DNA of 6,185 bases, taken from positions 1 through 6,185 of the forward strand of contig JAITLF010000335.1 of the NCBI GenBank assembly GCA_031278025.1, in the 5' to 3' direction. How positions within the stretch are numbered: position 1 is the first letter of the stretch; the number at the start of each line of letters is the position of its first letter. Positions 1-6,185 of the stretch are shown here, one piece after another. The DNA is from Treponema sp. (GTDB taxonomy: Bacteria > Spirochaetota > Spirochaetia > Treponematales > Breznakiellaceae). A program made the translations under genes and the position numbers. Under the pieces are notes generated by a model. That model was not told the origin of the DNA and did no database searches. It saw only the letters and a list, made by a program, of their open reading frames with translations.

Positions 1-62
1 ATCAGTTTCTCCGTATGCAGATAGTACCCGGCATCATGATAAATTGTTAGAGCCTGGCGCAT
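1..62 (-). CDS. N-terminal fragment of an unidentified gene, cut by the left edge
   Basis: Read on the minus strand, ATG at 62-60 opens a frame that stays open to the window edge and encodes MRQALTIYHDAGYYLHTEKL. Its composition (mixed polar and aromatic residues, ordinary codons) is unlike the low-complexity peptides read from the adjacent repeat array, so I take it as the start of a real protein. The frame also stays open upstream for some distance, but only into GC-rich DNA and the array, so ATG 62 is the sensible start. There is no Shine-Dalgarno sequence; a -10-like GATACT lies 5 nt upstream, as at other leaderless-looking starts in this window. The gene is divergent from the helicase across the array. 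I do not recognise the family from 20 residues. Confidence 0.55.
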   Translation of the reverse strand, partial: MRQALTIYHDAGYYLHTEKL

Positions 63-94: not shown

Positions 95-415
95 GTCCGA
101 AACTTCCAGACTTGAGTCTGGAACTTCCAGACTTGAGTCTGGAACTTCCAGACTTGAGTCTGGAACTTCCAGACTTGAGTCTGGAGGTTCCAGACTTGAG
201 TCTGGAGGTTCCAGACTTGAGTCTGGAGGTTCCAGACTTGAGTCCGAAACTTCCAGACTTGAGTCTGGAACTTCCAGACTTGAGTCTTGAACTTCCAGAC
301 TTGAGTCTGGAGGTTCCAGACTTGAGTCTGGAGGTTCCAGACTTGAGTCCGAAACTTCCAGACCTCATTTCTTGAAGTCCCAGACCTCATTTCTTGAACT
401 TCCAGACCTGGGTTT
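95..415. repeat. Tandem array of 21-bp palindromic units
   Basis: Twelve cores CCAGACTTGAGTC begin at 106, 127, 148, 169, 190, 211, 232, 253, 274, 295, 316 and 337, with a period of exactly 21 bp. They are separated by 8-nt spacers of three main types: TGGAACTT (A), TGGAGGTT (B) and CGAAACTT (c), plus one TTGAACTT. Each unit is a dyad. With A spacers, TTCCAGACT and AGTCTGGAA pair around TG, and a second dyad centres on the C of the spacer. Degenerate units start at 358, 380 and 402, now 22 bp apart, and have lost the right arm. The array lies wholly between divergent start codons (62 and 564). Because 21 is a multiple of three, it can be read as heptapeptides on both strands (SLELPDL on plus, a QTQVWK-like peptide on minus). 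I regard these readings as artefacts. It lacks the unique spacers of a CRISPR. Function unknown. Confidence 0.95.
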
Positions 416-522: not shown

Positions 523-552
523 TTGACACGGCTGTCCCTCATGCCATAGTAT
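523..552 (+). promoter_or_regulatory. Sigma70-type promoter of the helicase gene
   Basis: A perfect TTGACA at 523-528 is followed after 18 bp by TAGTAT at 547-552 (4 of 6 matches to TATAAT). Transcription would start near 559, only about 5 nt before the ATG at 564. This agrees with the absence of a Shine-Dalgarno sequence and suggests a nearly leaderless mRNA. It also places the repeat array upstream of the transcript. Confidence 0.55.
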
Positions 553-563
553 TCCCAAACTAT

Positions 564-2357
564 ATGACCACTACTGAAACCCCCCACCCTTTTGCTTCCT
601 TCAATTTATCCCCTGGGATTCTGGATGCCCTAACCCGCAAAGGGTTTACCGTTCCCACTTCAATTCAAGCCATCGCCCTGCCCCGGCTCCTCTCCGGCGA
701 AGATCACCTCATCGTCAAGGCAAGAACCGGTACGGGGAAAACCGCCGCCTTTGGGATACCCCTTATCGAGCGGTTCATCCGCGGCGGGATTGCCCCGGGC
801 CATGCGCCCAGGGCGCTGATTCTAACCCCCACCAGAGAGCTGGCCCTCCAGGTGTCCCTGGAAATCGCTTCCTTTATCCCCCGTAACGAAGCCGGCGAGG
901 GAAAGGCGGCCCCCCGGATCACGGCGGTCTATGGCGGGGCTTCTATCAGAAACCAGATCATCGCCCTCAAACGGGGCGCGGAAATCGTGGTGGGGACTCC
1001 CGGCCGGGTGATGGACTTGATGGAACGGAAGGTCCTGGACCTTTCAACGGTGGATTGGTTCATTTTAGACGAGGCGGATGAAATGCTGGACATGGGCTTT
1101 CTTGAGGATGTGGAGATGATCCTCGGGGCGGTTAAAAGCGACCGCCGGGTAGCCCTGTTTTCGGCGACGATGCCCGAAGCGATACTCCGGGTGATTCGGG
1201 AACATATAGGAGATACCGAGATACTGGAGGACCGCGCCGCGGTTGATGAAAAGCCGGCGGTTGATCAGTTTTACCTGGTGCTGCGCCGGGAAGACCGGCT
1301 TGAGGCGCTCAGGCGGCTTATAGACGGGGCGGAGGATTTCTACGGGCTGGTGTTCTGCGCCACGAAAGCCGGGGCGGATGAACTTGCCCGGCGGCTTCTT
1401 GACGCGGGTTATGTCGCCGAAGTCATCCATGGGGACCGGTCCCAGGAGGAACGGGAGCGGACTCTCCAGCGGTTCCGGGCGTACCGGGCTGTTTCGGGCG
1501 GCGACGCGGCGATACTGGTGGCCACCGATGTGGCGGCCAGGGGCATAGACATAGAGCGGCTGACCCACGTAATAAACTGGGACTTCCCCAATGACCGGGA
1601 GTCTTACGTTCACCGCATAGGCCGTACCGGCAGGGCGGGCCGCCGGGGTAAGGCCGTGAGCCTGGTCCTGCCCGCGGAGCAGGGGCGGATCGGCCAGTTC
1701 TCCCGGAGCATGGAGCGGGTCTTGGGGAGCCGCATAGAATGGATGCGCATACCTCCGGTAAAGTCGGTGATGAAGGCCAGGGAGCGGCGCATCCTGGCGG
1801 CGGTACTTGCGGCGGTTCCCGAACAACAAATCGGGGAGGACGGGATGTCCCCTGACCCCGCCGCCGCGGATGGGGCGCAGGACCTCGCGGGGGCGGGTGC
1901 GGCTTCCCTGGCCGCAAGCCCCAGGCTGGAAGAAACCGTCCCGGAAACGGCGGCGTTTCCCGATGCCCGGCTCTCCCGGTTAGGCCGCAAGCTCATTGAA
2001 CGGCTCGGCCCCGAAGGGGCGGTGGAAGCCCTGGTAACCGCGGCGTACGGGGAGCTTCTGGACAGCGGGCGGTACGGGCCGGTAACGGAATTCCCGGAGC
2101 CCGGGGCGTGGGAAGATACCCGGCGGGGAAGGCGCGGCGCGGACCGCCCTGACTCAGGCGGCGGGCGAAGGCCGCCGGGAACCGCCCGCCGGCATACGGC
2201 AGGTTTCACCGGGGGGAAGGCCGGGGGAGCGAGGAGAAGCTGGTCCGGGTTTACGTGGGCCTGGGCCGGAGGCATGGGGCCGCTGCCAGGGATGTGGCGG
2301 GGATTCTTATGCGGGCGGGAGGAGTACCGGGGCGGCTGGTGGATTCTATTGAAATGA
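564..2357 (+). CDS. DEAD-box ATP-dependent RNA helicase (DbpA/CsdA type), frameshifted near the C-terminus
   Basis: This is an ATP-dependent RNA helicase that remodels RNA duplexes; family members act in ribosome assembly or cold-shock RNA handling in the cytoplasm. The 597-aa frame carries the Q motif (F13 to Q35), Walker A ARTGTGKT (53-60), PTREL (89-93), TPGR (145-148), DEAD (169-172), SAT (200-202), VFC (263-265), VATDVAARGID (319-329) and HRIGRTGRAG (350-359). Both RecA-like domains are therefore complete. I start it at ATG 564. The frame is open upstream to 372, but that part only reads the repeat array and GC-rich DNA and lies ahead of the promoter. After about residue 550 the sequence becomes Trp/Gly-rich nonsense, while the expected RNA-binding domain continues one frame away up to 2473. 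One additional base in the G-run near 2211-2227 would give a single 636-aa protein. Exact orthology (DbpA or CsdA/DeaD) is not settled, so I give no symbol. Confidence 0.93.
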   Translation: MTTTETPHPFASFNLSPGILDALTRKGFTVPTSIQAIALPRLLSGEDHLIVKARTGTGKTAAFGIPLIERFIRGGIAPGHAPRALILTPTRELALQVSLEIASFIPRNEAGEGKAAPRITAVYGGASIRNQIIALKRGAEIVVGTPGRVMDLMERKVLDLSTVDWFILDEADEMLDMGFLEDVEMILGAVKSDRRVALFSATMPEAILRVIREHIGDTEILEDRAAVDEKPAVDQFYLVLRREDRLEALRRLIDGAEDFYGLVFCATKAGADELARRLLDAGYVAEVIHGDRSQEERERTLQRFRAYRAVSGGDAAILVATDVAARGIDIERLTHVINWDFPNDRESYVHRIGRTGRAGRRGKAVSLVLPAEQGRIGQFSRSMERVLGSRIEWMRIPPVKSVMKARERRILAAVLAAVPEQQIGEDGMSPDPAAADGAQDLAGAGAASLAASPRLEETVPETAAFPDARLSRLGRKLIERLGPEGAVEALVTAAYGELLDSGRYGPVTEFPEPGAWEDTRRGRRGADRPDSGGGRRPPGTARRHTAGFTGGKAGGARRSWSGFTWAWAGGMGPLPGMWRGFLCGREEYRGGWWILLK

Positions 2358-2473
2358 AGGATTACTGCGCGTTTGCCACGATGCCCCCGGACGCGGCAAA
2401 ACGGGCGTATGAATTCTCCCGAAACACCCCCCAGGACCCGGCGATACGGCCGGCATCCCCGGCAAGGTACTGA
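2228..2473 (+). CDS. Out-of-frame DbpA-type RNA-binding domain, C-terminal part of the helicase
   Basis: In the frame -1 relative to the helicase the sequence reads SEEKLVRVYVGLGRRHG, then a stretch containing RDVAGILMRAGG, VDSIEMKDYCAFATMPPDAA and a short tail, with TGA at 2471-2473. This matches the DbpA RNA-binding domain pattern (PF03880 type: LVRxYVxxGRxxG, about 20 residues, an I-x-I strand, then F-A-x-x-x-V/M-P). That domain normally follows the second RecA domain and gives RNA specificity. There is no credible independent start: the first upstream stop in this frame is at 2150-2152 and GTG 2255 falls inside the domain. I therefore treat it as the severed end of the helicase. Causes could be a recent one-base deletion, a sequencing error in a G-run, or ribosomal frameshifting. 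Confidence 0.8.
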   Translation, partial: SEEKLVRVYVGLGRRHGAAARDVAGILMRAGGVPGRLVDSIEMKDYCAFATMPPDAAKRAYEFSRNTPQDPAIRPASPARY

Positions 2474-6160: not shown

Positions 6161-6185
6161 CCAGGTTTCCTGATCGCAAACCTGG
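6161..6185. repeat. Inverted repeat at the right window edge
   Basis: CCAGGTTT (6161-6168) and AAACCTGG (6178-6185) are perfect 8-bp arms around a 9-nt loop ending exactly at the window edge. AAACCCAGG (6157-6165) is the reverse complement of CCTGGGTTT (407-415), which ends the 21-bp array. It could be a terminator stem or the beginning of another palindromic repeat; the continuation is not visible. Confidence 0.4.

What the first reader, a model, noticed from the sequence alone, without database searches (positions are those of the whole stretch)
95..415. In-phase array of twelve palindromes between two divergent genes
Twelve perfect cores repeat every 21 bp, which is two turns of B-DNA, so all dyads face the same side of the helix over 252 bp. 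The array lies between two divergent start codons and ahead of a TTGACA promoter. A phased array of identical dyads resembles a landing strip for a cooperatively binding protein (partition-site, iteron or multi-operator architecture) more than random satellite. If transcribed, it could fold into many alternative hairpins.
Basis: partly seen in the sequence, partly recalled or inferred. Interest (0 to 1): 0.75.

Follow-up and report, generated by a model that had tools for sequence, protein, structure and literature searches.

The report
Fixed-length 21-bp palindromic satellite array
This is a block of near-identical 21-letter palindromic repeats between two genes of an uncultured, probably termite-gut, spirochaete; in its relatives such blocks occur at many places with ever-changing sequence but a repeat length of almost always 21 or 23 letters, so it looks more like a spreading satellite than a dedicated control site.

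Summary
Twelve perfect 13-bp cores sit exactly 21 bp apart inside a 14.5-unit array at 101-407; the full 16-bp dyad is intact in nine. The array lies between a P83/100-like gene, whose start falls just outside the window, and a DEAD-box/DbpA helicase, and is not part of either protein.

A landing strip dedicated to this locus is not supported. Look-alike arrays in relatives lie beside other genes. Of 14 helicase orthologues, 3 have arrays upstream, none more like the window's unit than shuffled units. In contigs taken by number from six array-bearing spirochaete MAGs (505 kb), arrays fill 1.6%. Their period is 21 (25 segments) or 23 (17), rarely 22 (2); sequence is nearly free. Such arrays are almost absent from four array-poor relatives and from unrelated bacteria. 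Units are enriched for dyads, but paired bases do not covary. Two arrays are missing at the matching sites of a close relative.

This matches the published, unexplained class of bacterial tandem repeats with constant length and variable sequence (Subirana & Messeguer). It appears to be a spirochaete variant with a 21/23 rule.

The parts
101..407 (.). tandem array, 21-bp unit AACTTCCAGACTTGAGTCTGG, 14.5 copies, 90% matches, no indels
   Evidence: TRF; unit nearly fully dyad-symmetric, 9 of 10 pairs, p 0.002 against shuffled units
106..349 (+). twelve perfect cores CCAGACTTGAGTC every 21 bp; nine carry the full dyad CCAGACTTGAGTCTGG
353..409 (.). degenerate end of the array (CCAGACCTCATTTCTTG-like units, read by TRF as 22 bp x 2.6)
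   Evidence: sequence
1..49 (-). upstream region of a divergent P83/100-like gene whose ATG lies about 3 bases outside the window; if the frame is as in L361, TGA at 2-4 (minus strand) closes it upstream
   Evidence: 86% match to L361 796-844; L361 protein is PF05262, E 2.6e-95
523..552 (+). sigma-70-like promoter candidate for the helicase (TTGACA, then CATAGT or TAGTAT)
   Evidence: consensus match only
564..2473 (+). DEAD-box RNA helicase with C-terminal DbpA domain; one frame change near 2230 separates the two parts
   Evidence: PF00270 and PF00271 in 564-2357, PF03880 in 2255-2473; orthologues align from the first residues at 564

Best explanation
The array is one member of a class of non-coding minisatellites with fixed unit length (21 or 23 bp) and nearly free sequence, found at many places in the genomes of a family of uncultured, probably termite-gut, treponemes. 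Shown by computation in relatives: the period rule, sequence freedom across genomes, dyad enrichment, no codon signature, fast turnover at two orthologous positions, and two sites where a close relative lacks the array. Inferred: placement between genes and in untranslated ends; arrival of arrays as a block (or in one burst) from other arrays in the same or related genomes by recombination or transfer; homogenisation by unequal exchange or slippage in register, so that unit length is inherited while sequence drifts. Dyads would come from how the units were first made (hairpin-prone seeds), not from selection on each pair. The array would have no dedicated function for the helicase or the P83 gene, though it may add spacing, hairpins or bound protein incidentally.
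For: Lag counts on 54 contigs (505,487 bases) of six array-bearing MAGs, without the six contigs picked because of hits: period 21 x25, 22 x2, 23 x17, 14 x4, 28 x3, 30 x1, 35 x2, nothing else from 10 to 40; 1.59% of bases. Pattern allowing steps of 18-26 in 195 family genomes: 34 match; of the 150 rows listed (a capped list, several rows per array) 135 span 48 bp (step 21), 11 span 52 (23), 3 span 53, 1 spans 50 (22). Units across genomes are about as alike as shuffles (21 bp: 9.83 vs 9.78 matches), while 6 of 162 within-genome pairs are at least 76% identical and 0 of 661 between genomes (4 of the 6 involve contigs picked for hits). Look-alikes of the window unit lie beside other genes in 9 of 9 loci. 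No codon-phase bias in 66 arrays of 21 bp (Fisher p 0.99). No covariation of arms in 48 arrays. An array in G004 is missing at the matching site of G046, in an inferred 5' leader, and another between a stop codon and a terminator-like hairpin. Isolated two-copy duplications away from arrays: 0 at 21 bp, 1 at 23 bp.
Against: The window's own genome is not held, so dispersal in this very organism is unseen. Only two filled/empty sites were read; neither shows a clear target duplication, loss in G046 is possible, and at the second site a 13-bp stretch of G046 resembles part of the unit, so a local seed is not excluded. Before duplications near arrays were dropped, two-copy repeats were also mostly of 21 (16) and 23 bp (6), which growth at array edges would explain as well. 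No transposase or other agent was linked. A small excess of similar units across genomes exists (13 or more matches: 15 vs 8.5 expected at 21 bp, 15 vs 9.3 at 23 bp). Descent from two founders explains the gap at 22 only if indels hardly ever spread; constant lengths published in unrelated phyla suggest a stronger constraint. A simple ORF caller covers 65% of array bases on average, against 85% of the loci, so placement between genes is not proven for the class.
Confidence: 0.5

Rival explanations
1. Length-reading protein lattice: a nucleoid-associated or structure-binding protein polymerises on any array of weak dyads spaced about two helical turns apart, so length is selected and sequence is not. 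Subirana and Messeguer propose a version of this.
For: Strict length with nearly free sequence; dyad enrichment, mean stem 4.95 vs 3.56, Fisher p 9e-11 over 57 arrays; proposal in PMC8161180 section 4.1.
Against: 23 bp is not two turns and 22 is rare; arms do not covary, 2303 paired cells vs 2314 in shuffles, 21 double changes vs 25; presence at two orthologous positions is not conserved.
Confidence: 0.2
2. Locus-specific multi-operator or partition site.
For: Position between divergent genes; exact spacing; strong dyads.
Against: 3 of 14 helicase orthologues have any array upstream and none resembles the window's unit beyond chance; related genomes hold many arrays of different sequence, about 200 per genome if the densities hold.
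Confidence: 0.07
3. RNA-level element: the transcribed array makes serial hairpins acting on mRNA stability or termination.
For: Two relatives' arrays lie in inferred leader or trailer DNA; strong single-strand folding of the window array (DNA parameters); 52-nt satellites of Bacillus coagulans are transcribed (PMC8625621).
Against: No pair-preserving changes; the window array lies upstream of the only promoter-like site found, that of the helicase (the left gene's promoter was not located, so transcription through the array is not excluded); no Rfam family.
Confidence: 0.1
4. Coding heptad repeat (21 = 7 codons).
For: Open frames run through the array; one G011 array family, read by eye, continues as EVLEYIP repeats into unique sequence.
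Against: No codon-phase signature in 66 arrays of 21 bp; 23-bp arrays cannot keep frame; in the window the P83 frame would be closed by TGA and helicase homology starts at 564; none of 1600 candidates scored as a homologue of the 174-aa frame.
Confidence: 0.04
5. Assembly artefact of one metagenome project.
For: The three array-bearing sampled MAGs with known names (G001, G004, G006) have similar accessions and contig names, as from one project (the project identity is inferred). The others are unnamed.
Against: An Endomicrobium MAG of the same sample code as G006 (Gx481) and three others with like accessions have no match to one period pattern; units differ within arrays and keep higher-order order; the window shows the same.
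Confidence: 0.04

Closest known systems
Bacterial tandem repeats of constant length and variable sequence (Subirana & Messeguer 2019-2021)
   Same: Mostly non-coding arrays with constant unit size, no sequence conservation, several families per genome, present in some species and few in others; sizes 20-21 (20-23 in many bacterial groups) or 52 nt (PMC8161180, passages and sections 3.3 and 4.1 read). Leptospira interrogans has non-coding families, with repeat lengths including 46 and 69 nt (PMC6749651, section on families); that these are multiples of 23 is my remark.
   Different: Here two sizes, 21 and 23, coexist with few at 22; units are dyad-enriched (for 52-nt repeats the authors do note short sequences and their reverse in one repeat); empty sites in a close relative were read. 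PMC8161180 does not contain the words Treponema or Leptospira; the other papers were not searched for Treponema.
REP/BIME and RAYT systems
   Same: Extragenic palindromes, many per genome, dispersed; Y1 transposase genes are present in 16 of 20 searched relatives.
   Different: REPs share sequence across the genome (recalled); here sequence is nearly free and units are head-to-tail. The window unit lacks the GTAG and CGTC tags.
CRISPR arrays
   Same: Partly palindromic repeats at regular spacing.
   Different: No spacers; Cas1 in 3 of 10 array-rich and 4 of 10 array-poor genomes.
Iterons, partition sites, multi-operators (recalled)
   Same: Direct repeats of about two helical turns.
   Different: Those keep one sequence for one protein at one locus; this class does not.

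Membership tests
Constant-length variable-sequence bacterial tandem repeats | four or more tandem copies | tested here: met
   14.5 copies
Constant-length variable-sequence bacterial tandem repeats | unit size in the published classes (20-23 or 52 nt) | tested here: met
   21 bp; classes from PMC8161180
Constant-length variable-sequence bacterial tandem repeats | non-coding | tested here: met
   window array: codon-phase p 0.55, i.e. no signal; flanking gene starts outside the array; open frames do run through it
Constant-length variable-sequence bacterial tandem repeats | many arrays of one length and different sequences in the same genome | tested here: met
   met in six relatives; not testable in the window's own genome
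Constant-length variable-sequence bacterial tandem repeats | families of related arrays at several loci of one genome | tested here: met
   relatives only: 6 of 162 within-genome pairs at 76% or more, 0 of 661 between genomes; 4 of the 6 involve contigs picked for hits
Constant-length variable-sequence bacterial tandem repeats | characteristic short sequence shared by the repeats of a species | not tested
   reported for Bacillus; not examined here
REP/RAYT | palindromic unit | tested here: met
REP/RAYT | one conserved unit sequence across the genome | tested here: not met
   relatives: mean within-genome unit identity 0.50
REP/RAYT | GTAG or CGTC tag | tested here: not met
   unit read by eye on both strands; tags named in the title of PMC3733652 (search listing)
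REP/RAYT | linked transposase | tested here: inconclusive
   Y1 copies 97,33,14,13,13,9,6,6,1,1 in ten array-rich and 46,9,3,1,1,1,0,0,0,0 in ten genomes taken as array-poor; 4 of 14 Y1 loci not chosen for an array had one nearby
CRISPR | unique spacers between repeats | tested here: not met
   head-to-tail units without spacers
Operator, iteron or partition array | sequence and position conserved with the served gene | tested here: not met
   3 of 14 helicase orthologues have arrays, none like the window's
Operator, iteron or partition array | cognate DNA-binding protein | not testable with these tools
   needs pull-down

The most novel reading that the evidence does not exclude
These spirochaetes run a sequence-blind molecular ruler: an unknown enzyme or lattice protein makes and spreads palindromic satellites in units of exactly 21 or 23 bp, hardly ever 22, arriving as whole arrays in leaders, trailers and gaps between divergent genes. 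It would be a gene-less mobile repeat defined by length and not by sequence.
Probability: 0.2. Interest if true: 0.85.

Novelty: new variant of a known kind. Interest (0 to 1): 0.5.

Why it matters
Why some bacteria hold many arrays of one unit length but no common sequence is called enigmatic by the authors who described it. That allows 'length set when arrays are made' to be tested against 'length selected by a bound protein'.

Tried and rejected
Sequence-specific core: the ACTTGA 21-step pattern hit 14 of 195 genomes, but the pattern read backwards hit 18 of 195, so the core itself is not special. Exact 19-bp stretch of the unit in genome contigs: 0 matches. Protein reading of the array: no homologue. 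RAYT: copy number leans to array-rich genomes, but G004 and G127 have one copy each and G010 has 46. Of 20 loci fetched around Y1 genes or arrays, 17 gave a Y1 match; 14 of these were not chosen for an array, and 4 of the 14 hold a 21- or 23-bp array of at least 3.5 copies, which the general density would roughly predict. Cas1 and reverse transcriptase: no link. Selection on hairpins: no covariation. Growth from local two-copy duplications: 22 two-copy repeats of 21 or 23 bp at first, but 1 left once those within 300 bp of an array were dropped, with slightly different thresholds. The full-unit symmetry test was weak for the class, 9 of 57 at p<0.05; the stem test is stronger, 18 of 57; both include six contigs chosen for pattern hits. 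The cross-genome similarity is inflated by choice of loci; one search repeats it without those and finds none on average for 21 bp and a slight excess for 23 bp (11.01 vs 10.78). The claim that arrays avoid genes was dropped to an inference.

Full report
What is there. The window holds a tandem array at 101-407: 21-bp unit, 14.5 copies, no indels. The core CCAGACTTGAGTC is perfect in 12 consecutive units. Nine of these keep the whole 16-bp dyad. The 21-bp unit is almost fully self-complementary (9 of 10 pairs, p 0.002 against shuffled units), so the array also forms long inverted repeats in many registers. It ends in degenerate units at 353-409.

Where it lies. To the right is a DEAD-box/DbpA helicase. 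Its start at 564 agrees with the N-termini of relatives, and a TTGACA site stands at 523; no minus-strand promoter-like site was found in 1-700. To the left, window 1-49 matches at 86% the stretch just upstream of a P83/100 gene of genome G034. If the same gene follows here, its ATG is three bases outside the window and a TGA at 2-4 closes its frame upstream. The array would then lie between two divergent upstream regions and not be part of either protein.

Whose it is. No genome is held for the window. The six best helicase relatives are spirochaete records named Treponema, Spirochaetaceae or Spirochaetia. That they come from termite guts is my inference from their isolate codes and company; no call states it. 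A 19-bp stretch of the unit occurs in none of the genome contigs records.

The class. Relatives carry many arrays. I took contigs by number from six MAGs that were helicase relatives (G001, G004, G006) or had shown pattern hits (G032, G051, G127), so the density holds for array-bearing genomes. In 54 contigs (505,487 bases), after dropping six contigs picked because of hits, segments with at least 80% self-match over three periods number 25 at period 21, 2 at 22 and 17 at 23. The only other periods between 10 and 40 are 14 (4), 28 (3), 30 (1) and 35 (2). Arrays of 21 and 23 take 1.59% of the bases. The same count gives none at 21 or 23 in G142, G140 and G003, one at 21 in G002 (840,000 bases for the four), and none in 855,798 bases around helicases of 74 other loci. 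With TRF the 74 loci hold one 23-bp array, in L058, and 18 further family genomes sampled with one contig each (217,861 bases) hold one of 21 and one of 23 bp.

Over whole genomes, AAGTCT three times with free steps of 18-26 bp matched 34 of 195 family genomes. Of the 150 rows listed, a capped list with several rows per array, 135 span 48 bp, 11 span 52, 3 span 53 and 1 spans 50; the pattern read backwards also matched in many genomes, so the letters are not special. The same pattern in 14 other genomes matched one, at step 24. Four of those 14 are Endomicrobium MAGs with like accessions, one of them of the same sample code as G006. This and the variation among units speak against an assembly artefact.

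Length fixed, sequence nearly free. Units of different genomes are on average no more alike than shuffled units for 21 bp (35 units, 475 pairs, 9.83 vs 9.78) and slightly more for 23 bp (20 units, 125 pairs, 11.01 vs 10.78, about three standard deviations of the null mean); close pairs (13 or more matches) are 15 vs 8.5 and 15 vs 9.3 expected. Within a genome some arrays share a unit: 6 of 162 pairs at 76% or more, against 0 of 661 between genomes; four of the six involve contigs picked for hits. The window's unit has look-alikes, for example 18 of 21 with an array of G139 and 17 of 21 with one of G004 (these loci were found by similarity). None of nine such loci contains the helicase or P83. 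The ACTTGA core as such is not conserved: read backwards it hits as often (68 matches in 14 genomes against 66 in 18).

Dyads. Over 57 arrays, including the window and contigs picked for hits, the longest stem in the unit averages 4.95 bp against 3.56 in shuffles; 18 of 57 have p<0.05, Fisher p 9e-11. Yet in 48 arrays with stems of 5 or more the two arms do not change together: 2303 of 2782 cells paired against 2314 expected, 21 double changes against 25. Dyads look like a feature of origin and not of upkeep. The window alone has 2 double changes against 0.1 expected, too few to weigh.

Not coding. In 66 arrays of 21 bp, changes show no preference for a codon position (Fisher p 0.99; 2 of 66 below 0.05); the same holds for 20 arrays of 23 bp. 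Some 21-bp arrays may still code; one G011 family, read by eye, runs as EVLEYIP into unique sequence.

Placement. A simple ORF caller covers arrays to 65% on average and their loci to 85%; a 21-bp unit without a stop is open by itself, so this does not settle the matter. With arrays masked, the neighbouring ORFs are co-directional in 20 cases, divergent in 8, convergent in 3, and 25 of 56 arrays lie too near a contig end. That arrays lie between genes is therefore inferred, from tight flanks and from the two sites read below.

Turnover. Upstream of the helicase, 3 of 14 orthologues from array-rich genomes have an array within 700 bp (G006 period 22/44, G051 42, G024 21). Against the window's unit they score p 0.35, 0.90 to 1.0 and 0.07. 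One of the 14 had only 213 bp upstream, a fifteenth locus, cut by its contig end, was left out, and three of the 18 searched genomes gave no clear orthologue. G004 shows three degenerate units by eye there, which TRF does not report. For a second gene, 16 orthologues were read; only G004 has a 21- or 23-bp array upstream. G127 has 3.1 copies of a 27-bp unit there, and in two of the 16 only about 300 bp upstream were held. G046, 94% identical in that protein, has alignable flanks and no array. In G004 the array sits between an inferred promoter and the ATG of the leftward gene. A second G004 array, of 23 bp, lies between a stop codon and a terminator-like hairpin and is also missing in G046. 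By eye neither empty site holds the unit as a single copy, but at the second a 13-bp stretch in the G046 hairpin (11 of 13) resembles part of it. Two-copy repeats of 21 (16) and 23 bp (6) are seen in the sample; once those within 300 bp of an array are dropped, 8 remain at lengths 15-40, none of 21 and one of 23. Together this favours arrival as a block, or one burst, over slow local growth from unique DNA. Loss in G046 cannot be excluded at either site.

Agents. Y1 transposases are more numerous in array-rich genomes but not needed in number: G004 and G127 have one each. The six array-poor genomes other than G142, G140, G002 and G003 were called poor mainly because two patterns missed them. 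Cas1 is in 3 of 10 array-rich and 4 of 10 array-poor genomes, RVT_1 in 4 of 10 and 5 of 10. No agent is identified.

What is known. [quoted passage not shown] passages and sections 3.3 and 4.1 read). Sizes are 20-21 nt, given as 20-23 nt in many bacterial groups, or 52 nt. They propose a polymerising protein or small RNAs, note that 20-21 nt is two helical turns, and note short sequences and their reverse within one 52-nt repeat. Their 2019 survey lists L. interrogans families of 46, 69 and 37 nt, several of them clearly non-coding (PMC6749651; abstract and two sections read); 46 and 69 are multiples of 23, which is my remark. The 52-nt repeats of B. coagulans are transcribed (PMC8625621; abstract and sections 1, 3.2 and 4 read). 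Their J Bacteriol 2020 paper is not held. Searches for termite-gut Treponema with tandem or intergenic repeats gave no paper. So the class is known and this is a spirochaete variant. I did not find the 21/23 rule with few at 22, or the empty sites, in what I read.

Verdict. Real, and more interesting as a member of a class than as a single array. Best reading: a dispersing satellite with fixed unit length. The locus-specific landing strip is unlikely; a length-reading protein remains open.

Noticed in passing
window 2200-2260: The helicase frame changes near 2230: PF00270/PF00271 and the DbpA domain lie in different frames, while 15 relatives have one open frame of 562-660 aa. Sequencing error or a broken gene.
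   Followed up: partly
window 6161-6185: The last bases hold an 8-bp-arm inverted repeat (CCAGGTTT...AAACCTGG) that could be the first unit of another array cut by the window end.
   Followed up: no
L003, upstream of the helicase: A RAYT-like Y1 transposase gene stands just upstream of the helicase in G001.
   Followed up: partly
L107 1343-1905 and L362 1-690: Composite arrays keep a single 21-bp register while blocks of units change sequence, including replacement of one palindromic core by another.
   Followed up: partly
L375 7956-8496, L380 896-1183, L376 1835-1936, L379 1452-1867: GGGGACAGACCTC-containing repeats in G011, near Y1 transposase genes in L376 and L379, look like a REP family of their own.
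   Followed up: no
G012 and G010, whole genomes: 97 Y1 transposase matches in a 2.2-Mb genome (G012) and 46 in G010, an unusual load.
   Followed up: no
L223 10328-10719 and L225 5125-5633: Two G032 arrays of one unit family share alignable DNA on their flank too, so a larger segment may have been copied.
   Followed up: no
L126 8120-8300 (G004) and the matching site in L424 (G046): The 23-bp unit beside a terminator-like hairpin is itself a hairpin with a C-rich loop that recalls the loop of the G046 hairpin; some arrays might descend from terminators (by eye).
   Followed up: no
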